In this document: positions 3 through 37,365 of the stretch, one piece after another
Layout: every line of letters begins with the position of its first letter
Numbering within the stretch: the first letter of the stretch is position 1
NCBI GenBank assembly: GCA_021813825.1
Contig: JAKAJI010000009.1
Coordinates: forward strand, 1-37,365
Source of the DNA: Acidobacteriota bacterium
Lineage (GTDB): Bacteria > Acidobacteriota > Terriglobia > Bryobacterales > Bryobacteraceae
DNA: 37,365 nucleotides
Direction: 5' to 3'
The notes under the pieces: model-generated
Told to the model about the DNA's origin: nothing
The model's database searches: none
The model's input: the letters and a program-made list of their open reading frames with translations, nothing else
Position numbers and translations under genes: made by a program

Positions 3-839
3 GCCGGCCAGGCCGGGAAGAGCTTCGAGGAAGCGGTTGTGGCGCTTGGCTGGGAGGCTCCGCCGGAAGACCCCGCCGTTCTTGCTGCTCGCTGGGCCGC
101 CGAGCTCGACCGTCATCACGTGGCCCGCGCCGCGCTGATTGCGAGCATCCCCGGCGATGAAGGCTCGGTTGTCTGCGCTGCGACGGCTCATCCGGGCCGC
201 TTCCGCGGTTTTATGATGGTCAACCCGGCCGCCGACCGCGCCGTCGAAAATGCCGCTGCGGCGCTGGCGGGCGGCCACATGCACGCCGTCTGTTTATTTC
301 CTGCGCTTCACGGTGTCCCGCTTTCCGACGCGCGAAGCATCGCCGTCGTCGAAGCCGCCGCCGCGCACTCCGCTGCGGTCTTTGTGCACTGTGGAGCGCT
401 CAGCATTGGCTTCCGCACCAAACTCGGTCTTCCCGGCGCCGCCGATATGACGCTGTCGAATCCCTTGGCACTGCACCCGATCGCGCAGCGGTTTCCGCGC
501 GTCCCGTTCCTCGTTCCGCACTTCGGCGCGGGACTGCTGCGGGAAGCCCTCATGCTGGCGGACCTCTGCCCCAACGTGTATCTCGACACCTCCAGCAGCA
601 ATCGATGGATGCGCTATGAAGGTTCGCACTGCGACCTGCGGGAAGTCTTCCGCCGCGCTCTCGAAGTCGCGGGCCCGCAGCGCCTCCTTTTTGGTACCGA
701 CTCCTCGTTCTTCCCCCGGGGCTGGCATGCGGCGATCTTTGAAGTCCAGTCACGGGCGCTCTATGAAATCGGCGTCAACGAGGAAGACGCAGCCCAAATC
801 TTCTCGGGCAACTTCGACCGGCTTTTCCCGGCGACCTGA
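3..839 (+). CDS. Amidohydrolase-family (amidohydro-rel, TIM-barrel) metal-dependent hydrolase, 5' end truncated by the window edge
   Basis: Frame is open to the window start (AGQAGKSFEEAVVALGW...). Contains VFVHCGA, FLVPHFGAG and LLFGTDSSFF...FSGNFDRLF, typical of amidohydrolase_2. Confidence 0.75.
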   Translation, partial: AGQAGKSFEEAVVALGWEAPPEDPAVLAARWAAELDRHHVARAALIASIPGDEGSVVCAATAHPGRFRGFMMVNPAADRAVENAAAALAGGHMHAVCLFPALHGVPLSDARSIAVVEAAAAHSAAVFVHCGALSIGFRTKLGLPGAADMTLSNPLALHPIAQRFPRVPFLVPHFGAGLLREALMLADLCPNVYLDTSSSNRWMRYEGSHCDLREVFRRALEVAGPQRLLFGTDSSFFPRGWHAAIFEVQSRALYEIGVNEEDAAQIFSGNFDRLFPAT

Positions 840-955
840 GGTATTCCCGAAGGCTATTCCCTGGCAGGGGCATAGGTCTACGTTACCGGGCGAGAGCATT
901 GGGTGATTGGCCTCACCAATCAGATGGGCACATCAGGCCATCGAGTCACCCGGAT

Positions 956-1513
956 ATGCAGATCTTCATGAGGTGGAAACCAGCCTCCCGGCCGACTTCC
1001 CGGCTGGCTGAGTACGAATCGCCGGTGCAACCGGTCCCGCGGACGGTTGTCCTCGAGCCGGGCTTTGCGGAAACAAAGCGTGTGAAAGTGTTTGGACAGG
1101 GTTGGGACGAGTCCGCAGCGCGGGTCCGGCCTGCTGTCATCGCCGCGCCAGCGCCGGATCTGATCCGGCTGGCGGAGCGTTGGGAATCCCGATGGGCGCG
1201 GCCGACGCACTTCCTGGTCATTCTTGGCCGCGTGGATACGGGCCCGGCCACAGCGGAGGAGCGGGATCTGCTCTGGGAAGCTTTCGGTCTCCCGGTGTTC
1301 GAGCAGGTGCTGGACGGTTCGAATCATGTGCTGGCCTACGAGTGCGACGCCCATGATGGCTTTCACGTGCGCCGGGTGGGCCTGCGCCTCAGCGGCTGCG
1401 TGCTCGAGAATTCTCTTTGTGCGTGTGGGGATCCCGCGCCCCGTCTGCTTCCGCTGCCGGCGCCGGCCTACGCCCTGACGCACCGCGCGGGGGAGGATTT
1501 CGCGAGACAATAA
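956..1513 (+). CDS. Hypothetical protein (about 185 aa)
   Basis: ORF 899..1513 with internal ATG at 956 (MQIFMRWKPASRP...). No family recognised. The overlapping antisense ORF makes the strand call moderate. Confidence 0.45.
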   Translation: MQIFMRWKPASRPTSRLAEYESPVQPVPRTVVLEPGFAETKRVKVFGQGWDESAARVRPAVIAAPAPDLIRLAERWESRWARPTHFLVILGRVDTGPATAEERDLLWEAFGLPVFEQVLDGSNHVLAYECDAHDGFHVRRVGLRLSGCVLENSLCACGDPAPRLLPLPAPAYALTHRAGEDFARQ

Positions 1514-1521
1514 GCTCACGG

Positions 1522-2946
1522 ATGTCTCGTTTGCGGTTTTATCTGTGGCTAGGGTTGGTGACAGTGCTCGGGGGGCTCCCCGGATCGAGCGTCGCAGCGC
1601 AGGACCGGGTTTCGACGCGCGTGCCGTCGCTGCGGGAGTTCAGCAGTTCGCTCGAATCGCTCTCAAGCCGCGTGCGGCAATCGGTGGTGCAGGTCTTCTC
1701 GATCGGTTATGCTCCGGTAGACGCGTCGCCGGACAGCGACTCGAGCGATCCGGTGGTCTCCAAGCAACACAGCAGCGGGTCGGGAATCGTTCTGTCCTCG
1801 GACGGCTACCTGGTCACCAATGCTCACGTGGTTCAAGGCGCGCGCCGGATTCAGGTAAGGCTGCCGGCGCCAGCCTCGGGAAGCGGCGTGCCGGTGCCGC
1901 AGGCCAAGATTGACGCCAAGCTTGTCGGCATCGACCACGAGACCGATATCGCGGTGCTGAAAGTGGAGCGGACCGGGCTCGAACCGCTCGAATTCGGTAA
2001 CTCAGACGAGCTGCGGCAAGGGCAGGTTGTGCTCGCCTTTGGCAATCCGTTCGGCCTCGAAGGTTCGGTGACGCTGGGCATCATCAGTTCGGTGGCGCGC
2101 CAGATCCGCCCGGACGACACAACGGCTTATATCCAGACGGACGCGCCGATCAACCCGGGCAACAGCGGGGGGCCGCTGGTGGACGACGCCGGGCGCCTGG
2201 TTGGGGTGAACACGCTGATCCTGTCGCAGTCCGGCGGAAGCGAAGGAATTGGTTTTGCGATTCCCAGCAATCTTGTGCAGGCAGTCTATGGCCAGATCCG
2301 CAAGAACGGTCACGTGCACCGGGGCCAGATCGGGATTTACGCGCAAACGATCACGCCGGCGCTGGCGAGCGGCCTCGATCTGCCGCAAGATTGGGGCGTG
2401 GTGGTGAGCGACGTGGACCCGGACAGCCCGGCGAGCGAGGCCGGCATCCGCATCGGCGACATCATTTCCGCCATTGACGGGGGGAAGGTGACGAACCTGC
2501 GCCAACTCGAGTTGGCGATCTTCCGCTACTCGCCCAACGACCGCGCCCACATTCGCGTGCTGCGGGGCAACAAGACGCTCGAACTCGCGGTGCGCGTGAT
2601 CGAGCGTACGGACGACCCGGAGCGATTCGCCGACCTGGCCACGAGCGAGGACAACCTTGTGCCGAAGCTCGGCATTCTTGGGGTCACGATCGACCGCCGG
2701 CTGGCCGATCTGCTGCCCGACCTTCGGCTTGCGGGCGGGGTTGTCGTGGCGGCGCTGTCGCCTGACGCCGACCCTGACGAAACGGGACTGGAGACCGGAG
2801 ACGTCATTCATGGTGTGAACACACACGTGGTTCCGAGTGTGGCCGTTCTCAACGAACTCTTGAAGGACTTTACGAGCGGGGACAATGTCGTGCTGCAGGT
2901 TGAGCGCGACGACCGGCTCATGTTTCTCGTCGTTGAGGTTGAATAG
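1522..2946 (+). CDS. HtrA/DegP-like trypsin-type serine protease with two PDZ domains
   Basis: Signal peptide MSRLRFYLWLGLVTVLGGLPGSSVAAQ. Catalytic triad contexts TNAHVV, DHETDIAVLKV and NPGNSGGPL, then two PDZ-like segments (VSDVDPDSPASEAGIRIGDIISAIDG; VAALSPDADPDETGLETGDVIHGVN). Confidence 0.9.
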   Translation: MSRLRFYLWLGLVTVLGGLPGSSVAAQDRVSTRVPSLREFSSSLESLSSRVRQSVVQVFSIGYAPVDASPDSDSSDPVVSKQHSSGSGIVLSSDGYLVTNAHVVQGARRIQVRLPAPASGSGVPVPQAKIDAKLVGIDHETDIAVLKVERTGLEPLEFGNSDELRQGQVVLAFGNPFGLEGSVTLGIISSVARQIRPDDTTAYIQTDAPINPGNSGGPLVDDAGRLVGVNTLILSQSGGSEGIGFAIPSNLVQAVYGQIRKNGHVHRGQIGIYAQTITPALASGLDLPQDWGVVVSDVDPDSPASEAGIRIGDIISAIDGGKVTNLRQLELAIFRYSPNDRAHIRVLRGNKTLELAVRVIERTDDPERFADLATSEDNLVPKLGILGVTIDRRLADLLPDLRLAGGVVVAALSPDADPDETGLETGDVIHGVNTHVVPSVAVLNELLKDFTSGDNVVLQVERDDRLMFLVVEVE

Positions 2947-2949
2947 AAA

Positions 2950-4344
2950 TTGGTGCGGCGTCTGATTTCGCTGTTATCGCTTGCCGCCGTTTTGGCCGCG
3001 CCCGCGGCGCCCCAAACGGCGAGGAAGAAGCACGCCGCGACAGCCGCTCCGAACCCGGAAACCGGAACGTTTCCCATCCTCAAGCTGGGTGTGCGAGGCA
3101 ACGACGCATTCACGGCGGCCCAGGTGCTCGCCGTTACCGGGCTTAGCCAGGGGGAACGCGTCAAGGCGGCCGACTTCGAAACGGCCCGCCAACGCCTGCT
3201 GGCGACCGGCGCCTTTGAACAGGCTGGCTTTGAATACCACTTCGGCTCGGACGCCAATGGCCCTGGTTTTTTGACCACCTTTGAAGTGAAGGAAGTCCCG
3301 CAGTTTTATGCGATGTCGTTTGAGGACCTGCCGGCGCCGGAGAGCGACCTCCGCCGCTGTCTTCAGCAAAAAGACCCGCTGTTCGGGCCGAAGATCCCCG
3401 TTACGCAGACCTTCCTCGACCGCTACACCGGCTTGATTGAGCAGTGTCTTGCCCCCTACAACTTTAAGGAACACGTGAAGGCTCAGCTCACTGCGGATTA
3501 TTCCCCGGACCTCACAATTCTTTTCCGCCCTTCCACGCCTCGTCCGAACATCGCGGAAGTGTTCTTCACTAACACCGGCGACTTACTGCCGGCCGCATTG
3601 CAGACGGCCATTGCCGGCGCCGCGATCGGCCTGGGTTATACCGAGCACCGTTTCCGGGCGATTCTCGATTCCACCATCCGTCCGCTGTATGAGGCGAAAG
3701 GCCACATCCGCGTCTCGTTTCCTTCGATTGTCACCAAGCCATCGGATAACGTGAAGGGGCTGGCCGTTACGGTGAAAGTGGACCCTGGTCCGGTGTACAA
3801 GCTGATGTCGGTTCGCGTCAGCGGGGCAGAGGACATCCCGCCGCTGATGAAATTCAAGCCAGGGGACGTGGCGGATTTTGACAAGGTGAAAGCGGCGCAG
3901 GCGCGGCTGGACGACATTTTGCACCGCCGTGGCTACCTGCACGAGACGACGGAGGAACTGCGCACCATCGATGATGTGGGACACACCGTGTCGGTGACGC
4001 TTCGCGCCAACCCGGGGCCGCAATACCTGACGGGGAAACTGACCATCGTCGGCCTGGACTTAATCTCGGAACCGGCGATCCGCAAGATCTGGGGCCTTGC
4101 GCCGGGCCAGCCATTTAATGCGGCGTATCCGGACCATTTTCTCAAGGTGGTGCGCGACGAGGGATTGTTCGACAACCTCGGCGCGACCAGTTCGGCGACG
4201 AAGATCCACGAAGATACGAAAACTGTGGACGTGACCCTGACTTTTTCCGGTCCAAAGCGGAAGCAGGATTGGGAGACGCACCCCACGGGAGCGGACCCGG
4301 TACAACCGGACCTCGGTGTTCCGTTTCCGCCTTACCCACCATAG
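2950..4344 (+). CDS. POTRA-repeat outer-membrane-assembly-like protein lacking a BamA-type beta-barrel
   Basis: Several POTRA-like repeats (LGVRGNDAFTAAQVLAVTGLSQGERV; VDPGPVYKLMSVRVSGAE; ANPGPQYLTGKLTIVGLDLISEPAIRKIWGLAPGQPF). Ends in a Pro-rich tail, PFPPYPP. Follows the HtrA gene after 3 bp. Confidence 0.7.
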   Translation: MVRRLISLLSLAAVLAAPAAPQTARKKHAATAAPNPETGTFPILKLGVRGNDAFTAAQVLAVTGLSQGERVKAADFETARQRLLATGAFEQAGFEYHFGSDANGPGFLTTFEVKEVPQFYAMSFEDLPAPESDLRRCLQQKDPLFGPKIPVTQTFLDRYTGLIEQCLAPYNFKEHVKAQLTADYSPDLTILFRPSTPRPNIAEVFFTNTGDLLPAALQTAIAGAAIGLGYTEHRFRAILDSTIRPLYEAKGHIRVSFPSIVTKPSDNVKGLAVTVKVDPGPVYKLMSVRVSGAEDIPPLMKFKPGDVADFDKVKAAQARLDDILHRRGYLHETTEELRTIDDVGHTVSVTLRANPGPQYLTGKLTIVGLDLISEPAIRKIWGLAPGQPFNAAYPDHFLKVVRDEGLFDNLGATSSATKIHEDTKTVDVTLTFSGPKRKQDWETHPTGADPVQPDLGVPFPPYPP

Positions 4345-4392
4345 ATTCGTGGCCAGACTCGTAGCGCGCCGCCGGAAGCCGCGGCACGCTGG

Positions 4393-4398
4393 TATCCT
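4393..4398 (+). promoter_or_regulatory. Candidate -10 element (TATCCT) for tRNA-Leu
   Basis: TATCCT ends 22 nt upstream of the tRNA 5' end. Confidence 0.35.
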
Positions 4399-4420
4399 GA
4401 CGAGAGAAGCGCACCGCGCC

Positions 4421-4507
4421 GCGGACGTGGCGGAACTGGCAGACGCACTGGATTTAGGTTCCAGCGGCCTCACGGCCATGGGAGTTCGACCCTCCCCGTC
4501 CGCACCA
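4421..4507 (+). tRNA. tRNA-Leu (anticodon UAG), CCA encoded
   Basis: GCGGACG/CGTCCGC acceptor stem, anticodon arm CTGGA-TTTAGGT-TCCAG, a long variable arm typical of class II tRNA, GGGAG-TTCGACC-CTCCC T arm, encoded CCA. Confidence 0.95.
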
Positions 4508-4633
4508 CATCTTTCGCACTCGATCGCCCAAGTTTGGAAGCGCGTACAAATCTTTGTTCAACCGGCCGCGGCCGGCGTATGCTGGTCCAAAACCCCGTAT
4601 GTGCGGCGCAACGGACCCCATAGGGACGGAAAG

Positions 4634-4655
4634 ATGCCCGCGGTTTGTCGGGCAT
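4634..4655 (-). terminator. Candidate terminator hairpin of the DUF883-like gene
   Basis: Perfect 7-bp arms ATGCCCG/CGGGCAT with an 8-nt loop, immediately 3' of the minus-strand gene. Read on the minus strand it is followed by TCTTTCC. Confidence 0.45.
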
Positions 4656-4659
4656 TCCT

Positions 4660-4956
4660 TCAGCGCTTGATCAGACGCGGCGCGAGGAACCCCAGCGCGG
4701 CGCCGGCCACCAGCGCAATCGCTATCGAGCTGCCCGGGTGGCGCTTGACTTGTCTTCCAGCGCGCGCAGCGCCATCTTCCAACGCCAGACGGCCCCGTTT
4801 CAGGAAACGGCCAGCGGACAGTCTGCCCGCCTCGATCCCCTCACAAAGCGCGGTTCCGGCCTGGCTGAGCCTCTGCTCGACAAAGGCCGCCGTTCGCTGC
4901 GCGCCCTCCACCCATGGTTTCCCTTCCACCTTCAACGGCTTCAGCATCGTCGCCAT
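4660..4956 (-). CDS. YqjD/ElaB-like (DUF883-like) C-terminal membrane-anchor protein
   Basis: Helical N-terminus followed by C-terminal RHPGSSIAIALVAGAALGFLAPRLIKR, typical of DUF883-like anchors. Start at 4956 is preceded by GGAGGC. Confidence 0.65.
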   Translation of the reverse strand: MATMLKPLKVEGKPWVEGAQRTAAFVEQRLSQAGTALCEGIEAGRLSAGRFLKRGRLALEDGAARAGRQVKRHPGSSIAIALVAGAALGFLAPRLIKR

Positions 4957-5089
4957 ATCGGCCTCCTGAACCCCAGAAGCTTGCAATACTCATGCCAGTG
5001 GCTATCTGAACAAATGCCAGGCAAAAACCGACGGGCGGAGTTATCCTGGACTATCAGTTGCACACCACCCTGTGGAGACGAGTTGGAAG

Positions 5090-6388
5090 ATGAGTACTCC
5101 GGACGTGATTCTCAATAATCACAGCGGTCAGGCACACAGGGCCTTTCCGCTTCAAACCTGGTTGCTGCGTCAACTCTCCCAGACCGTCGGCGCCGCCCCT
5201 GTCCGGTTGGCTCTGAAAAGCGGCGCCGAGGTGTCGCCACCTGGCGTCGACCCGCTGGCCACGATTGTCGTGAGGGATTGGCCTACTCTGTTGAAGCTCA
5301 TCGCCGATCCAGAGATGGCATTCGGGGAAGCCTACGCCGATGGCCGGATTGAAGTAGAGGGCGATCTCGCCGGAGCGCTGGCGGCGATTTACCAGGCGTG
5401 GGAAGGCTCCGGCACCGGCCTTTATGAGTGGCTTACGTCAAAGTGCCTGAACTGGCTGCAGGACAACACGCGCGACGGCTCGCGAAACAACATCCATCGC
5501 CACTACGATCTCGGGAACGATTTCTACGAGCTTTGGCTCGATCCCGAGCTCGTTTACACCTGCGCTTATTTCGCCTCGCCCGGCGATTCGCTTGAGACCG
5601 CGCAGAAGTCAAAACTCGACTATGTTTGCCGGAAGTTGCAGCTCCAACCCGGCGAGCGCGTCGTCGAGGCAGGGTGCGGATGGGGTGCGCTGGCGCTTCA
5701 CATGGCGGAGAATTACGGCGTTTCGGTCAGGGCCTACAATATCTCGCATGAGCAGATCGCCTGGGCGCGCAGGCGGGCGGCGTCGAGAGGACTTAGCCAC
5801 CGGGTTGAATTCATCGAAAATGACTACCGCTCGATCGAGGGCAAATACGACGTGTTTGTTTCCGTCGGCATGCTCGAACACGTGGGCGCCGCGCACTATG
5901 CGGATTTTGGCCGGATCATCCACCGGGCGGTTGGCAACGCGGGCCGCGGGTTGCTGCATTTCATCGGGAGGAGTTACAAAGGCGAATTCAGCCGGTGGAT
6001 CCGCAAGCGGATTTTCCCCGGGGCGTATGCTCCAACGCTCGGTGAAGCAGTGAGCGTGCTGCAACCGCATCGCTTCGCGGTGCTCGATGTCGAGAATCTT
6101 CGCGTCCATTACGCGCGGACACTCGAGTGCTGGCTGGAACGCTTCGACAGGGAGGCCGCGCAGGTCTCGGCGAAATACGATCCATGGTTCACGCGAGCGT
6201 GGCGTCTTTACCTGGCTGGCTCGATCGCCGCCTTCCGCGCCGGTACGCTGCAACTGTTTCAGATTACCTTCGGCGGTCCAAAGAGCAAGCAAGTTTCCTG
6301 GACTCGCGCTCCACTCTACGCGAGCGCGACTGACTCAGCGATACCCGGTGCTCCGGGCGCGTCAACATGGAAGCCTGCGACGTTCTGA
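5090..6388 (+). CDS. cfa: Cyclopropane-fatty-acyl-phospholipid synthase family SAM methyltransferase
   Basis: NIHRHYDLGNDFYELWLDPELVYTCAYF, SAM motif VVEAGCGWGALALHMAENYGVSV, and VSVGMLEHVG are characteristic of CFA synthases. Confidence 0.9.
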   Translation: MSTPDVILNNHSGQAHRAFPLQTWLLRQLSQTVGAAPVRLALKSGAEVSPPGVDPLATIVVRDWPTLLKLIADPEMAFGEAYADGRIEVEGDLAGALAAIYQAWEGSGTGLYEWLTSKCLNWLQDNTRDGSRNNIHRHYDLGNDFYELWLDPELVYTCAYFASPGDSLETAQKSKLDYVCRKLQLQPGERVVEAGCGWGALALHMAENYGVSVRAYNISHEQIAWARRRAASRGLSHRVEFIENDYRSIEGKYDVFVSVGMLEHVGAAHYADFGRIIHRAVGNAGRGLLHFIGRSYKGEFSRWIRKRIFPGAYAPTLGEAVSVLQPHRFAVLDVENLRVHYARTLECWLERFDREAAQVSAKYDPWFTRAWRLYLAGSIAAFRAGTLQLFQITFGGPKSKQVSWTRAPLYASATDSAIPGAPGASTWKPATF

Positions 6389-15757: not shown

Positions 15758-17260
15758 ATGTCTGAATTCTCACGCCGACGTTTCCTCCAATCCGCCGCGG
15801 CGCTGGCGGCCTGCCCTGCCGGCGCCCGGCCCACGCCATCCTCGTCCGGCAAGCCGCCGAACGTCGTCCTCCTGATGTCCGATCAGCATCGCCGGGACGC
15901 CATGGGCGCGGCCGGGAGCCGGGTTGCACAGACACCAAACCTTGACCGGCTGGCGCGGGAAGGCGTCCGTTTCACGAACGCCTACACCGCCAATCCCGTC
16001 TGCACCCCGTCGCGCGCGTCGATGCTGACGGGCCTGTTCAGCCATCACAACCAGACGTATAACAACACCACGCCCTGGCCGCGCCGGTATCCCACCCTCG
16101 CGCACTATCTATCGCGCGCCGGATACCAGACCGCTCTGATCGGCAAAATGCACTTTGTCGACGACCAGACCCACGGCTTCGACTATCATCTTGACTTCAA
16201 CGACTGGTTCCAGGAACTCGGCCCGAAGACCCGCCTCTACGCCAACGAGCTTGCATTCCCCAACTCCGGGTCCGGCCTTCCGCAGATTGACGACCTCTGG
16301 CGCGACACCGGCGATCCCTGGAAGAATGACCGGGAATCCGACGGGCGGCTCGGCCCTGTTGCGGTCGGCCGCGTCTCCCGCATTCCCGAGCAGGACCAGT
16401 TTGAGACCTTCGTCGCCCGGGAATCGGTCCGTTTCCTTCGCCAGCACGGCCGCGAAGCTCCCTTCTTTCTCGTTGCGTCCTTCCTGAAGCCGCACGATCC
16501 CTTCATGCCCATTCAGCGCTTCGCGGACCGCTTCCGCCCCGAAGACATGGTGCTGTCGCCCACTTTCGGCAAGGTCGATCTTAGTACCGCTCCGGAAGAA
16601 GTCCGCCGGTCGATTCTCCGCAACCGTCCGACGCCCGAGTTGAGCGACCCGGAACAAGCGCGGCGCCGCATGGCGTATTACTTCGCCTCGATCGCCGAGA
16701 TGGACGACTGCGTGGGCAAGGTGCTCGCCGCCGTCGACGAACTGGATTTCACGCGCGACACGATCGTTCTCTATACATCCGATCACGGCGAGATGCTCAG
16801 CGACCACGGCATGTGGCAGAAGTTCCAGTTTTATGAACCTTCCTGCGGCATTCCGCTTCTGGTTCGCGCTCCGGGCATCGCCCCGGCGGGAAGCTTGTGC
16901 GAGATGCCTGTCAGCAACGTGCAGTATGTAAACACGATCTGCGAACTGTGCGGGGTTCCGCAGCCGGAAGGCCTCGACGGCGCCAGTTTCGCCCACCAGG
17001 TCCGCAACCCCGGTGACGCGCCACCCACTACGGTCTATTCCGAGTATGCCCTGCACTCGCGCGGCGCAAAATATATGATCCGCCAGGGCAGCCTCAAGTA
17101 CACGTTCCGCACTCATGACGAAGAGGAACTTTTCGACTTGTCCTCCGACCCGGAGGAAATGCGCAATCTTGCTCTGGAGCCGGGCGGCAAGCAACGGGCC
17201 GCCGAAATGAAGCAAAAGCTCTTCGCATGGTACACTCCGACCGAGATATCCATGTCTTGA
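15758..17260 (+). CDS. Sulfatase (S1 type), Tat-exported, Cys-type active site
   Basis: Twin-Arg SRRRFLQSAAALAA; NVVLLMSDQHRRDAMG; FGly motif CTPSRASMLTG with Cys codon at 16001; YTSDHGEMLSDHG. Confidence 0.92.
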   Translation: MSEFSRRRFLQSAAALAACPAGARPTPSSSGKPPNVVLLMSDQHRRDAMGAAGSRVAQTPNLDRLAREGVRFTNAYTANPVCTPSRASMLTGLFSHHNQTYNNTTPWPRRYPTLAHYLSRAGYQTALIGKMHFVDDQTHGFDYHLDFNDWFQELGPKTRLYANELAFPNSGSGLPQIDDLWRDTGDPWKNDRESDGRLGPVAVGRVSRIPEQDQFETFVARESVRFLRQHGREAPFFLVASFLKPHDPFMPIQRFADRFRPEDMVLSPTFGKVDLSTAPEEVRRSILRNRPTPELSDPEQARRRMAYYFASIAEMDDCVGKVLAAVDELDFTRDTIVLYTSDHGEMLSDHGMWQKFQFYEPSCGIPLLVRAPGIAPAGSLCEMPVSNVQYVNTICELCGVPQPEGLDGASFAHQVRNPGDAPPTTVYSEYALHSRGAKYMIRQGSLKYTFRTHDEEELFDLSSDPEEMRNLALEPGGKQRAAEMKQKLFAWYTPTEISMS

Positions 17261-17275
17261 TTGATTCACTGACCT

Positions 17276-18682
17276 ATGCCAGTTACTAACTCGAACCTAT
17301 CTTCACCGACCCGCCGCGACTTACTCGCAGGCGCCCTTGCTACTGCCGCTGCTTCCCGAGCCGCGGCGCAACCAGCCAACCCATCCCGCCCTAACATTCT
17401 CTACATCCATTCCCACGACACGGGGCGCTACCTCTCGCCCTACGGCCACGACATTCCCACGCCGAACCTCCAGAAACTGGCCGGCCAGGGCGTTCTGTTC
17501 CGGTCCGCTTTCAGCGCCGCGCCGACCTGCTCGCCCAGCCGCGCCTCACTGCTTACGGGCCAATGCGCTCACCAGAACGGAATGCTCGGCCTGGCGCACC
17601 GCGGCTTTTCCCTATACGACTACCGTCACCACATGCTTTATCCGTTGCGCGCCGCCGGCTACCGCTCGATTCTCGGCGGTGTCCAGCATATTGCCGCAAA
17701 GCCGGAAACCATCGGCTACGACGAGATTCTGCATTACCGGACGCAGCACGTTGCCGACGTGGCTCCCGCCGCTGCCGCCTTCCTCGATTCGCGCCCCAAG
17801 GAGCCTTTCTTCCTCGACGTCGGCTTCTTCGAAACCCACCGCGAGTACGCTGCGCCAACGCCTGACGATCAACCCCGCTTCACCCAGCCTCCGCGTACGG
17901 TTCCCGACCGTCCGGAAACCCGTGCCGATATGGCCGCCTTTCATGCAAGCGCGCGCATCCTCGACCAAGGCGTTGGCCAGGTGCTCGACGCCCTCGAACG
18001 CAACGGCTACGGCTCCAATACGCTGGTTCTCTCCACAACCGACCACGGCATCTCCTTCCCGCGCATGAAATGCAACCTCACCGACGACGGTTGGGGCGTT
18101 TCGATGATTCTGCGCGGTCCCGGTCTGTTCCCGGGCGGCCGCACGATCGACGCGATGATCAGCCAACTCGATGTCTATCCCACGTTGTGCGACTTGCTTG
18201 GGATTGAGCATCCGGCATGGCTGGAAGGGAAGTCGTTCCTCCCTCTGTTGCGCGGCGAAAACCGGCAGATCAACGAACAGATCTTCGCCGAGGTCAACTA
18301 CCACGCCGCTTACGAGCCGATGCGTGCCGTCCGCACGCAGCGCTATAAGTACATCCGGCGCTTCGGCGGCCGCAGGACTCCAGTTCTGCCCAACTGTGAC
18401 GATGGCCTCAGCAAGTCAGTTTGGCTCGAATATGGATGGAAGAACCGGCCGGTGCCCGAAGAGGAGTTATACGATCTGGTCTTCGATCCCGGCGAAGAAA
18501 ATAACCTGATCGCCGCGGCTAACTCGGCCGGGGCGGCGGATGAAATGCGCGGTCGCCTCGATGGCTGGATGCACGCCACCAACGACCCTCTGCTTCGAGG
18601 TCCAGTCGAGGCGCCGCACGGGGCCGTCGTCAACGACCCGGACGGCATCTCCCCCAAAGAGCCGGTTATCCGCGTGCCGTAG
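17276..18682 (+). CDS. Sulfatase, N-sulfoglucosamine-sulfohydrolase-like, Tat-type signal, Cys-type active site
   Basis: [40 protein letters not shown]; FGly motif [22 protein letters not shown] (Cys codon at 17528), resembling SGSH [22 protein letters not shown]. Confidence 0.9.
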   Translation: [468 protein letters not shown]

Positions 18683-34798: not shown

Positions 34799-35509
34799 AT
34801 GAAGAAAATCGTTCTCATCGAGGATGACAGGGATCTTTTTTCGCTTCTGCAATACAACCTCGAGAAGGAAGGCTACGCCGTGGCCGGCGCGCACACCGGC
34901 CGGGGAGCGGTGGATCTCTGTCTGCGCGAGAGGCCCGACCTGATCATCCTGGACATCATGCTGCCGGACTCTGACGGTCTTGAAATCTGCCGCCGTCTCC
35001 GCACGCATGCCCTGTTTGTCGCTACTCCCCTGATGTTCCTCACCGCGCGCGCCTCGGAAACCGACCGCATTCTGGGCCTCGAATTAGGCGCCAACGATTA
35101 CATCGTCAAACCCTTCTTCCTTCGCGAGGTAATCGCTCGCGTCAAAGTCCAGCTCCGCAGTCCCGGCGACCGGGCGAAGGTGCTCAGCGTTTCCGGCATC
35201 GAACTCGACCGCGCTCGCTGCCGGGTCTTCCTCGATGGCAACGAAGTGCAACTGACAGCCACCGAACTTCGTCTTCTCGATTTCCTCATGAGCCGCGCCG
35301 GCATCGTCTTCACGCGCGATCAACTCCTTGACGCCGTCTGGGGCAGCGACCGCGCGGTAACCGGCCGCACCGTCGATGTGTATGTTCTCCGCCTCCGCCA
35401 GAAGCTCGAGCCGGATCCGGCCAATCCGCGCCTCATCCGTGCCGTGCGCGGCTTCGGCTACAGCTTCAACGACGCCGGCGTGCATGCCGAAGCCCTGCCT
35501 CGCGCCTAG
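34799..35509 (+). CDS. phoB: PhoB-like OmpR-family response regulator
   Basis: MKKIVLIEDDRDLFSLLQYNLEKEGYAV...DLIILDIMLPDSDGLEICRRLR...IVKPFFLREVIARVKVQLR...VWGSDRAVTGRTVDVYVLRLRQKLEPDPANPRLIRAVRGFGY; located after phoU. Confidence 0.88.
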   Translation: MKKIVLIEDDRDLFSLLQYNLEKEGYAVAGAHTGRGAVDLCLRERPDLIILDIMLPDSDGLEICRRLRTHALFVATPLMFLTARASETDRILGLELGANDYIVKPFFLREVIARVKVQLRSPGDRAKVLSVSGIELDRARCRVFLDGNEVQLTATELRLLDFLMSRAGIVFTRDQLLDAVWGSDRAVTGRTVDVYVLRLRQKLEPDPANPRLIRAVRGFGYSFNDAGVHAEALPRA

Positions 35510-35538: not shown

Positions 35539-36354
35539 TTGGACTTCCGCTTCTACCGCCTCTGCTTTGAGCTTCGCGCCCGCGGGGAACTGCGCTTCCC
35601 TCCCTCCGGCGCGGCGAACGTCCTCCGGGGAGCCCTCGGCCTTGCCTTGCGCCGCACCGCGCCGCCCGAGGTTTATGAGCGCATTTTCGAACCCCGCCCC
35701 GCCGGGCCCAGCGGGCTCCGCCACCCGCCCCGGCCGTTTGTTCTCCGCGCTCGCGCCTGCCCGCAGGGAGCCGTCTCCGGTGAGCCTTGGCGCTTCGGGA
35801 TGAATGTGTTTGAAACAAATCAAACCATCGTTGATTCCATCGTTTTTGCGGTCTATCGCATGGCCGGTGAGGGACTCGGCCCCGTCCGCGCCCCCTCCGA
35901 TCTCGTCGCAGTCGTCTCCTCCGCCTGTTCGGTGGACCTCTCCACTCCCGAACCCGTCTCCCAAATCCGCGTCCGCTTCGTCTCGAACACCGAACTGAAG
36001 GCGGCCGGCCAACTCCCGGCCGTACCAACCTTTGCGCAACTGTTCTCCCGCGTCCGGGACCGTATCTCAAACTTGAGCACACTCTACGGTAGCGGCCCCC
36101 TTGAAATCGACTTCCGTGGTCTCGGCCATCGCGCTGCCGCCGTTCGGCTCGTCTCCAGCCGGCTCGAGCATGTTTCCCAGACCCGCCGCAGCAGCCGTAC
36201 CGGCGAAGTCCACCCCCTCGGCGGCTTCACCGGCGAGGTCACTTATTCCGGCGACCTCGCCGAATTCCTCCCCTTCCTTCGCGCCGCCCAATATACCGGG
36301 GTGGGACGCCAGGCGGTCTGGGGCAAGGGCGAGATCGAGGTCGAGCCGCAATAA
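35539..36354 (+). CDS. Cas6-like RAMP-superfamily protein (CRISPR_Cas6 C-terminal type), apparently orphan
   Basis: C-terminal GGFTGEVTYSGDLAEFLPFLRAAQYTGVGRQAVWGKGEIEV resembles the Cas6 signature (GGF.GEVTY.GDL..FLPLL......VGK.TSFGLG). N-terminal ferredoxin-like start FRFYRLCFELRARGELRFPPSGAANVLRGALG. Confidence 0.75.
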   Translation: MDFRFYRLCFELRARGELRFPPSGAANVLRGALGLALRRTAPPEVYERIFEPRPAGPSGLRHPPRPFVLRARACPQGAVSGEPWRFGMNVFETNQTIVDSIVFAVYRMAGEGLGPVRAPSDLVAVVSSACSVDLSTPEPVSQIRVRFVSNTELKAAGQLPAVPTFAQLFSRVRDRISNLSTLYGSGPLEIDFRGLGHRAAAVRLVSSRLEHVSQTRRSSRTGEVHPLGGFTGEVTYSGDLAEFLPFLRAAQYTGVGRQAVWGKGEIEVEPQ

Positions 36355-36368
36355 CGCCGCTCGCCCGC

Positions 36369-37365
36369 TCAGTGCCGTGGTGCGCCGGGCGTCAGCGCGA
36401 CCTCGTAGAAGAGCCCGGTCCGGAAATACAGGCCGATGACCGGAAATCCATTGGACACGCTCAGCGGAATCATCGTGCTCGGCGCCGCCATCGGCATCGT
36501 CGCCGGCAGCCCGCGCCACGATACTTCCGTGCCCTGATTGTCGGGGAGCACCGTCCGGATGTAGAACGGGCTGTCGTGGCTCAATGTCACACAGACACCC
36601 GTGGCGTCGTACTCGGTGCACGGCGCCGACGCTACGAAAATCTGGGTGCTGCCGTTCTCCATCGGCGCGGACACGGCCTGAAAGCTCTTCGGCCAGTACT
36701 CCTCGGCGTAGTCGGTCAGGCTGAAATTTGTTGGTGCAAGCGTGAGCACATCGTACTCCACCGCGCCGACCGAGGGCTGCATGCGCAGCAGTCCAAACGC
36801 CCCGGGTCCGAACGAGTAAGGCATCAGCACCGGCGCCGCGATCGGCTTGGCCGGAAGGCTCGCCTCCAGGCTTACCGACGAGGCATTGATCTGGTAGATA
36901 TCCATCACCGATGCGTCCATCGAGTTGTCAACGGCCAGGTAACGCACGCCTGAGTCTCCTTCGGGCTCGAACAGGATAGCGGCGTCCCCGCTCACCCCGG
37001 GTTGCGACCAGTCGGCGCTCATCCGGTTGTTGGATCCGATGACGTAATCGATCAGCGTGCCGTTCATCAACAACGCAAAGTGTGCCTGATGGTTCAGCGT
37101 GTAGCCGGTCGCTGCCTGGGGTAGCTGACCCATCGAATTGGTGTCCACCGGGGAGATGACGCCTGCCGGCGATACCACGCTCAGGGTATATTCACCCTCG
37201 CCGCCAATGGTGAGCAGGTAAGTGGTTCCGTTGACTTGGACCGATGACACGACCGCGGCATTCGGAGGCGCCGTCGTAAGCGCCGTTACCGTCGTGGGGG
37301 CCGGCACGAGTTGCTTGGTGAATGTCGGCGACAGCGCGACACCGGTCTGCCCGTCTCCGAAGTCA
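36369..37365 (-). CDS. Hypothetical beta-rich, probably surface/secreted protein; N-terminus beyond the window
   Basis: Minus frame is open to the window end (DFGDGQTGVALSPTFTKQLVPAPTTVTALTTAPPNAAVVSSVQVNGTTYLLTIGGEGEYTLSVVSPAG...). No catalytic motif recognised. Confidence 0.6.
   Translation of the reverse strand, partial: DFGDGQTGVALSPTFTKQLVPAPTTVTALTTAPPNAAVVSSVQVNGTTYLLTIGGEGEYTLSVVSPAGVISPVDTNSMGQLPQAATGYTLNHQAHFALLMNGTLIDYVIGSNNRMSADWSQPGVSGDAAILFEPEGDSGVRYLAVDNSMDASVMDIYQINASSVSLEASLPAKPIAAPVLMPYSFGPGAFGLLRMQPSVGAVEYDVLTLAPTNFSLTDYAEEYWPKSFQAVSAPMENGSTQIFVASAPCTEYDATGVCVTLSHDSPFYIRTVLPDNQGTEVSWRGLPATMPMAAPSTMIPLSVSNGFPVIGLYFRTGLFYEVALTPGAPRH

What the first reader, a model, noticed from the sequence alone, without database searches (positions are those of the whole stretch)
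35539..36354. Orphan Cas6-like gene without a CRISPR array or other cas genes, adjacent to phoB
The C-terminus GGFTGEVTYSGDLAEFLPFLRAAQYTGVGRQAVWGKGEIEV looks like the Cas6 RAMP signature. Upstream is phoB (29 bp away); downstream is an unrelated convergent gene (14 bp away). No repeat array was seen in the window. Possibilities: a trans-acting Cas6 for a distant CRISPR locus, or a domesticated RAMP endoribonuclease with a cellular RNA target. The first histidine I see is at about residue 62 (GLRHPPRP), so the canonical N-terminal catalytic His may be missing or displaced.
Basis: partly seen in the sequence, partly recalled or inferred. Interest (0 to 1): 0.7.

Follow-up and report, generated by a model that had tools for sequence, protein, structure and literature searches.

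The report
Trans-acting Cas6 conserved across Bryobacteraceae
The gene next to phoB is a genuine Cas6 (a CRISPR-RNA-cutting enzyme) that stands alone here but is kept by about nine in ten species of its bacterial family, together with a distant, even more widely kept type III-A (Csm) gene set, so it probably makes guide RNAs for complexes encoded elsewhere in the genome.

Summary
In detail: window 35539-36354 (+) encodes a 271-aa Cas6 (Pfam, PADLOC; AlphaFold model pLDDT 94.6 whose best PDB matches are all Cas6). Its MAG has no other detected Cas6, Cas1 or Cas3 and no detected array. The phoB link is trivial: only one other genome shows it.

The larger result is that this Cas6 belongs to a family-wide clade, found in 174 of 195 family genomes, usually as a lone gene with changing neighbours. 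A compact type III-A operon csm1-csm5 (Cas10 without HD domain, GGDD mostly kept), unlinked to cas6, arrays or cas1, occurs in 187 of 195, including this MAG. Clade members also sit inside type I-A operons (e.g. L043, L118, L299), one sits beside type III-D genes and arrays (L063), and genome G030 carries a type I-A locus without cas6 whose only detectable Cas6 is the lone one. The clade has an invariant His225 in lone and CRISPR-linked members alike.

Best reading: a resident, trans-acting pre-crRNA endonuclease shared by class 1 effectors, here most likely the Csm complex. Where guides come from in array-negative genomes is open; a domesticated, array-independent Csm-Cas6 complex is not excluded.

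The parts
35539..36354 (+). cas6 (lone), 271 aa, TTG start
35971..36336 (+). PF10040 CRISPR_Cas6 domain (residues 145-266)
36184..36234 (+). beta-hairpin region (residues 216-232, RRSSRTGEVHPLGGFTG less its first residue) with the clade-specific invariant His225 (codon 36211-36213)
36298..36330 (+). glycine-rich loop GVGRQAVWGKG (residues 254-264), the Cas6/RAMP signature
34808..35509 (+). phoB response regulator, upstream neighbour; linkage genus-level only
36369..37307 (-). convergent downstream neighbour, function unassigned; kept in G001

Best explanation
The gene is the resident Cas6 of a bacterial family (Bryobacteraceae by the record titles of its closest named relatives). It acts in trans: it binds pre-crRNA repeats and cuts them to give guide RNAs for class 1 effector complexes encoded elsewhere. 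In most family members, and in this genome, the available partner is a vertically inherited, compact type III-A complex (csm1-csm5, Cas10 with palm domains but no HD nuclease); in some genomes it is a type I-A or type III-D system. Shown: Cas6 fold and family, clade membership, near-universal co-presence of cas6 and csm1, in-cis use by type I-A loci, and a cas6-less type I-A locus in a genome with only the lone Cas6. Inferred: the cutting activity, use by the Csm complex, and the source of guides in this genome.
For: Cas6 by HMM and fold. Match in 174/195 family genomes, 65 of 68 genera; compact csm1 in 187/195; Csm3-type RAMP hits follow nearly the same family boundary in 60 relatives; the two genomes of genus g224 (98% and 91% complete) lack both. 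The fetched csm loci of the family carry csm1-2-3-4-5 in order where not cut by a contig end (G057 of another family is a distant variant), G000 included, its two contigs overlapping by 225 bp. Tree: family lone Cas6 form one clade (SH-aLRT 99) with type I-A-linked and III-D-linked members nested inside. In-cis loci: L043 (cas6-cas3-cas8a-cas7-cas5-cas1-cas2-cas4), L118, L126, L143, L299 with an array of 18 repeats, L063 beside two arrays and type III-D genes. G030: type I-A locus with a 63-repeat array and no cas6, only Cas6 the lone one. G029: arrays of 74 and 93 repeats, no csm or cas6 beside them, only RAMP effector the family csm, only Cas6 the lone one. Same residues in lone and linked members, His225 106/106 and 10/10. 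Purifying selection.
Against: No array was found in this genome or, with the pattern used, in about half of the family. Csm1 is present without a window-type Cas6 in about 20-30 genomes (e.g. G033, G003; some others, like G002, are assembly gaps), so within the family the two genes are not strictly coupled. No enzymatic data. The array search was limited to two repeat-end patterns.
Confidence: 0.72

Rival explanations
1. Domesticated, array-independent Csm-Cas6 ribonucleoprotein: the family keeps csm1-5 and cas6 as core genes for a cellular role, with guides cut by Cas6 from non-CRISPR transcripts.
For: csm1 in 96% and Cas6 in 89% of family genomes, against arrays with ATTG-type repeats in 51%; about 39 genomes at least 95% complete have both but no such array (hand count); csm lies next to the same ATPase gene in 12 loci of 8 genera; strong purifying selection; no cas1 at the csm loci.
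Against: Members of the same Cas6 clade serve ordinary CRISPR loci; G029 and G030 offer arrays for the lone Cas6. Arrays ending in ACTGAAAC were not searched, and at least one counted genome (G018) proved to have such an array. No conserved non-coding RNA was found next to csm.
Confidence: 0.15
2. Cas6 alone is domesticated to cut a cellular RNA, unrelated to CRISPR or Csm.
For: Lone position with no conserved neighbours in most loci.
Against: Nested with CRISPR-linked members that have the same invariant residues; csm present in nearly all the same genomes.
Confidence: 0.06
3. Relic of a lost CRISPR system, on its way out.
For: No array or cas1 detected in G000; sporadic absence (G003, G033, g239).
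Against: dN/dS 0.17, intact frame, all motifs kept, 89% family retention.
Confidence: 0.05
4. G000 holds a normal type III or I-A system whose array and adaptation genes were lost in assembly. This differs from the best explanation only in where the guides come from, so the two overlap.
For: 563 contigs, 94.6% complete; the csm operon itself is split, probably by strain variation; repeats assemble badly.
Against: The same picture recurs in near-complete relatives such as G340 (100%, 30 contigs) and G492 (100%, 2 contigs), within the limits of the repeat patterns used.
Confidence: 0.3

Closest known systems
Cas6 provided in trans to type III systems (PMC12669027; Sokolowski et al. PMC4041471, abstract only)
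   Same: PMC12669027 states that most type III systems apparently use Cas6 supplied in trans by other loci
   Different: Here the Cas6 is mostly not part of any CRISPR locus at all and is near-universal in a bacterial family
Type III-A CRISPR-Cas (csm1-5)
   Same: Complete csm1-5 order, Csm2 and Csm3 conserved, Asp of the Csm3 GGxDNPV motif kept, GGDD kept in most Cas10
   Different: Cas10 only ~480-490 aa without HD; no array, cas1/2 or cas6 at the locus; core-genome distribution with conserved synteny
HRAMP / ARAMP, array-less type III derivatives (PMC12669027, PMC8730458)
   Same: Type III-derived modules described without arrays
   Different: HRAMP has highly diverged Cas5/Cas7 and added nucleases, in Haloarchaea; ARAMP is its distant relative in Asgard archaea; here all five Csm subunits are recognisable and Cas6 is retained
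Subtype III-G (no array found, PMC12669027)
   Same: No adaptation module, no array at the locus
   Different: III-G has an inactivated Cas10 cyclase, an apparently active HD and no conserved catalytic Asp in Cas7: the reverse of what is seen here
Thermus thermophilus Cas6 (4c9d, 4c98) and the Cas6 of 4ill
   Same: Nearest folds to the model
   Different: 15-22% identity; no His in the first helix, where Thermus Cas6 TTHA0078 has His37 (4c97 is the H37A mutant)

Membership tests
Cas6 | Profile match over curated cut-off | tested here: met
   PF10040 53.8 vs 25 bits; PADLOC Cas6 6e-56; no NCBIfam model matched
Cas6 | Tandem RAMP/ferredoxin fold | tested here: met
   model pLDDT 94.6; best PDB matches all Cas6, probability 1.00
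Cas6 | C-terminal glycine-rich loop | tested here: met
   GVGRQAVWGKG; G256, G262, G264 conserved in all rows that reach there
Cas6 | Catalytic His in the first helix | tested here: not met
   no His in residues 25-40. From general knowledge this His is not universal in Cas6. CRISPR-linked members of this clade carry the same signature
Cas6 | Linked to arrays or cas genes | tested here: not met
   not in the window; met in clade members L043, L063, L118, L299
Cas6 | Cuts CRISPR repeat RNA | not testable with these tools
   needs biochemistry
Type III-A CRISPR-Cas (partner) | csm1-csm5 operon in the same genome | tested here: met
   G000 contigs C262 and C321
Type III-A CRISPR-Cas (partner) | Cas10 palm with GGDD | tested here: met
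   PF22335 1.1e-18; GGDD in G000 and 12 of 15 aligned
Type III-A CRISPR-Cas (partner) | Cas10 HD nuclease domain | tested here: not met
   aligns only to solved Csm1 from residue ~250 on; HD is optional in III-A (PMC11229360: present in 65%)
Type III-A CRISPR-Cas (partner) | Csm3 catalytic Asp | tested here: met
   invariant D43 in GGADNPV aligns with the Asp that is Ala in two solved Csm3 chains (6o7h, 6mur: IGGIANPV for IGGIDNPV), which I take to be catalytic mutants
Type III-A CRISPR-Cas (partner) | CRISPR array | tested here: inconclusive
   none with ATTG-type repeat ends in G000; ACTGAAAC-type not searched genome-wide
Type III-A CRISPR-Cas (partner) | Adaptation genes cas1/cas2 | tested here: not met
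   no Cas1 in G000, none at the csm loci; often absent in type III
HRAMP/ARAMP | Diverged Cas5/Cas7 with nucleases, no Csm operon | tested here: not met
   all five Csm subunits recognisable, no nuclease gene seen conserved at the locus

The most novel reading that the evidence does not exclude
A whole bacterial family keeps, as core genes at unlinked sites, an array-independent RNA-guided Csm complex and its own Cas6, with guides cut from cellular transcripts: a domesticated CRISPR effector for endogenous RNA control or signalling.
Probability: 0.15. Interest if true: 0.88.

Novelty: new variant of a known kind. Interest (0 to 1): 0.6.

Why it matters
CRISPR-Cas loci are normally patchy. A type III-A effector in 96% and its Cas6 in 89% of the sampled genomes of one family, unlinked to each other, to adaptation genes and often to any array of the kinds searched, is unusual. 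It shows that cas6 can become a resident, housekeeping-like gene serving several effectors, and it makes testable whether a vertically inherited, HD-less Csm complex works with borrowed guides or has left immunity. The clade also shows a relocated histidine, a handle on how Cas6 active sites change.

Tried and rejected
(1) Functional link to phoB or phosphate: rejected, neighbours are not conserved outside G001. (2) 'Csm3 lost its catalytic Asp' (my own early reading, K34): rejected after aligning with solved Csm3 chains; the Asp is D43 and invariant. (3) Lone Cas6 as a clade separate from CRISPR-linked ones: rejected, type I-A-linked members are nested inside. (4) Conserved guide-like RNA beside csm: nothing beyond a conserved patch near the csm1 start, similarity upstream among close relatives, and similarity downstream that reads as the ATPase gene. 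(5) Sequence search of the PDB with the Cas6 protein or profile: no hits; only the fold search worked. (6) Statistical coupling of cas6 and csm1 within the family: too few absences to test; only genus g224 lacks both. (8) Literature: no paper found on lone Cas6 or on Csm in Acidobacteriota.

Full report
What is there. The ORF at 35539-36354 (+) is real, 271 aa, 29 bp after phoB and 14 bp from a convergent gene. It is a Cas6 by Pfam (PF10040, twice its cut-off), by PADLOC over its full length and by fold: the AlphaFold model has pLDDT 94.6 and its best PDB matches are all Cas6, led by the Thermus TTHB231 product complex. It evolves under constraint (dN/dS 0.17 against G001, similar to phoB at 0.13). 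The window is one whole contig of MAG G000 (94.6% complete). No array lies in it, and genome-wide no Cas1, no Cas3-HD and no second PF10040 hit were found.

Who else has it. In 61 genomes (own plus relatives) orthologues occur almost throughout the same GTDB family and in one further family of the class, and are absent from the sampled sister families f2 and f3. In a larger sample of 195 family genomes 174 have a match at E <= 1e-10 (the few matches weaker than about 1e-35 are probably CRISPR-linked Cas6). Named records found with the clade's motif GR[QH]T[VT]WG[KNH]G are labelled Bryobacterales, Bryobacteraceae, Solibacter or other Acidobacteriota. Neighbouring genes are not conserved: only G001 keeps pst-phoU-phoB-cas6. 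G002 is cut by its contig end right after phoB, and G003 has an unrelated permease-like gene there. So the phoB link is recent and local.

A conserved partner. A RAMP search across the same relatives showed a ~280-aa Csm3 homologue in nearly every genome that has the lone Cas6, and RAMP hits in no f2 and only one f3 genome. Fetching these loci revealed a compact operon csm1-csm2-csm3-csm4-csm5 (PADLOC, Pfam, order). Csm1/Cas10 is ~480-490 aa, aligning to the palm regions of solved Csm1 but not to the N-terminal HD; GGDD is kept in 12 of 15. The Csm3 Asp of the GGxDNPV motif is invariant; it is the residue replaced by Ala in two solved Csm3 chains, which I read as catalytic mutants. This csm1 is found in 187 of 195 family genomes. 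In G000 the operon is split over contigs C262 and C321, whose ends overlap by 225 bp at 97.8% and which are collinear with G002. The locus has no cas1, cas2, cas6 or array, but in 12 loci of 8 genera it is followed by the same ATPase gene, which points to vertical inheritance at a fixed site.

What the Cas6 does elsewhere. Of 80 named-record loci, 73 hold the Cas6 without recognised cas genes nearby and 7 hold type I-A-like genes. L043 is a full type I-A operon starting with cas6; L299 is a type I-A locus with cas6 and an 18-repeat array (repeat end GGGGACTGAAAC); L063 lies beside two arrays (repeat end GGGGATTGAGAC) and type III-D genes. In the tree (quick method) these are nested inside the family clade (SH-aLRT 99), while CRISPR-linked type III Cas6 of the same genomes fall outside. 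The clade has its own signature, shared by lone and linked members: His225 invariant and Gly254, where CRISPR-linked Cas6 of other lineages have Met/Val/Leu and His.

Evidence for action in trans. G030 has a type I-A locus with a 63-repeat array, cas4, cas1, cas5, cas7, cas8a and cas3 but no cas6; its only detectable Cas6 is the lone one on another contig. G029 has arrays of 74 and 93 repeats, one of them beside a cas1 and a possible CARF gene, with no cas6 or csm at either; its only RAMP hits are the family csm and its only Cas6 the lone one. These cases make a shared, trans-acting pre-crRNA endonuclease the best reading. PMC12669027 states that most type III systems apparently use Cas6 in trans from other CRISPR loci; what differs here is that the Cas6 mostly belongs to no CRISPR locus and is near-universal in its family.

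What is open. About half of the family (95 of 195), G000 included, shows no array with ATTGNRRC repeat ends. By hand count about 39 of these are at least 95% complete and have both genes. A wider GATTNNNRC pattern found only scattered matches in 24 genomes (G000 and 23 near-complete relatives), against serial arrays in two controls, G010 and G357. But repeats ending in ACTGAAAC, recognised only later (L299, L305, L315), were not searched genome-wide, and G018, counted as negative, proved to have such an array. Array absence is therefore not established, and the domesticated reading stays at 0.15.

Coupling of the two genes within the family is not strict: csm1 occurs without the lone Cas6 in some 20-30 genomes, part of them assembly gaps; the genus g224 genomes lack both.

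Verdict. Observation confirmed; interpretation partly supported (trans-acting Cas6 yes, phoB link no, lone domestication unlikely). New variant of a known kind; interest 0.6.

Noticed in passing
L063 (G010:C13) 400-6163: Type III-D-like locus with a 1221-aa fused Csm3/Cas7 protein and a 701-aa Csm4-like protein next to two arrays; PADLOC also gives a gRAMP match. The compact csm1 is not found in this genus.
   Followed up: partly
L283, L301-L304 (G029): One genome with several kinds of CRISPR parts: type I-G-like genes, a Cas9-like gene with an array of 81 repeats, and two large arrays (74 and 93 repeats) with type III-A-like repeats but no effector genes beside them.
   Followed up: partly
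L281 (G021:C270) 31-657: Nine-repeat array (repeat end GCGATTGAGAC) with no recognised cas gene within 10 kb; the genome's only Cas6 is the lone one.
   Followed up: no
csm loci in genera g5 and g239: csm1 matched in two separate pieces in nearly all sampled genomes of these genera: possibly a split Cas10 or an insertion.
   Followed up: no
L253, L256, L257 (csm1): Cas10 cyclase motif altered to GGDE, GHDQ and GSDD; the GHDQ form (L256) may be inactive while the operon is kept.
   Followed up: no
window 15758-18682: Two adjacent sulfatase-like genes following a TonB-dependent receptor-like gene (read from the translations only).
   Followed up: no
window 4421-4504: tRNA gene, the only Rfam match in the window.
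   Followed up: no
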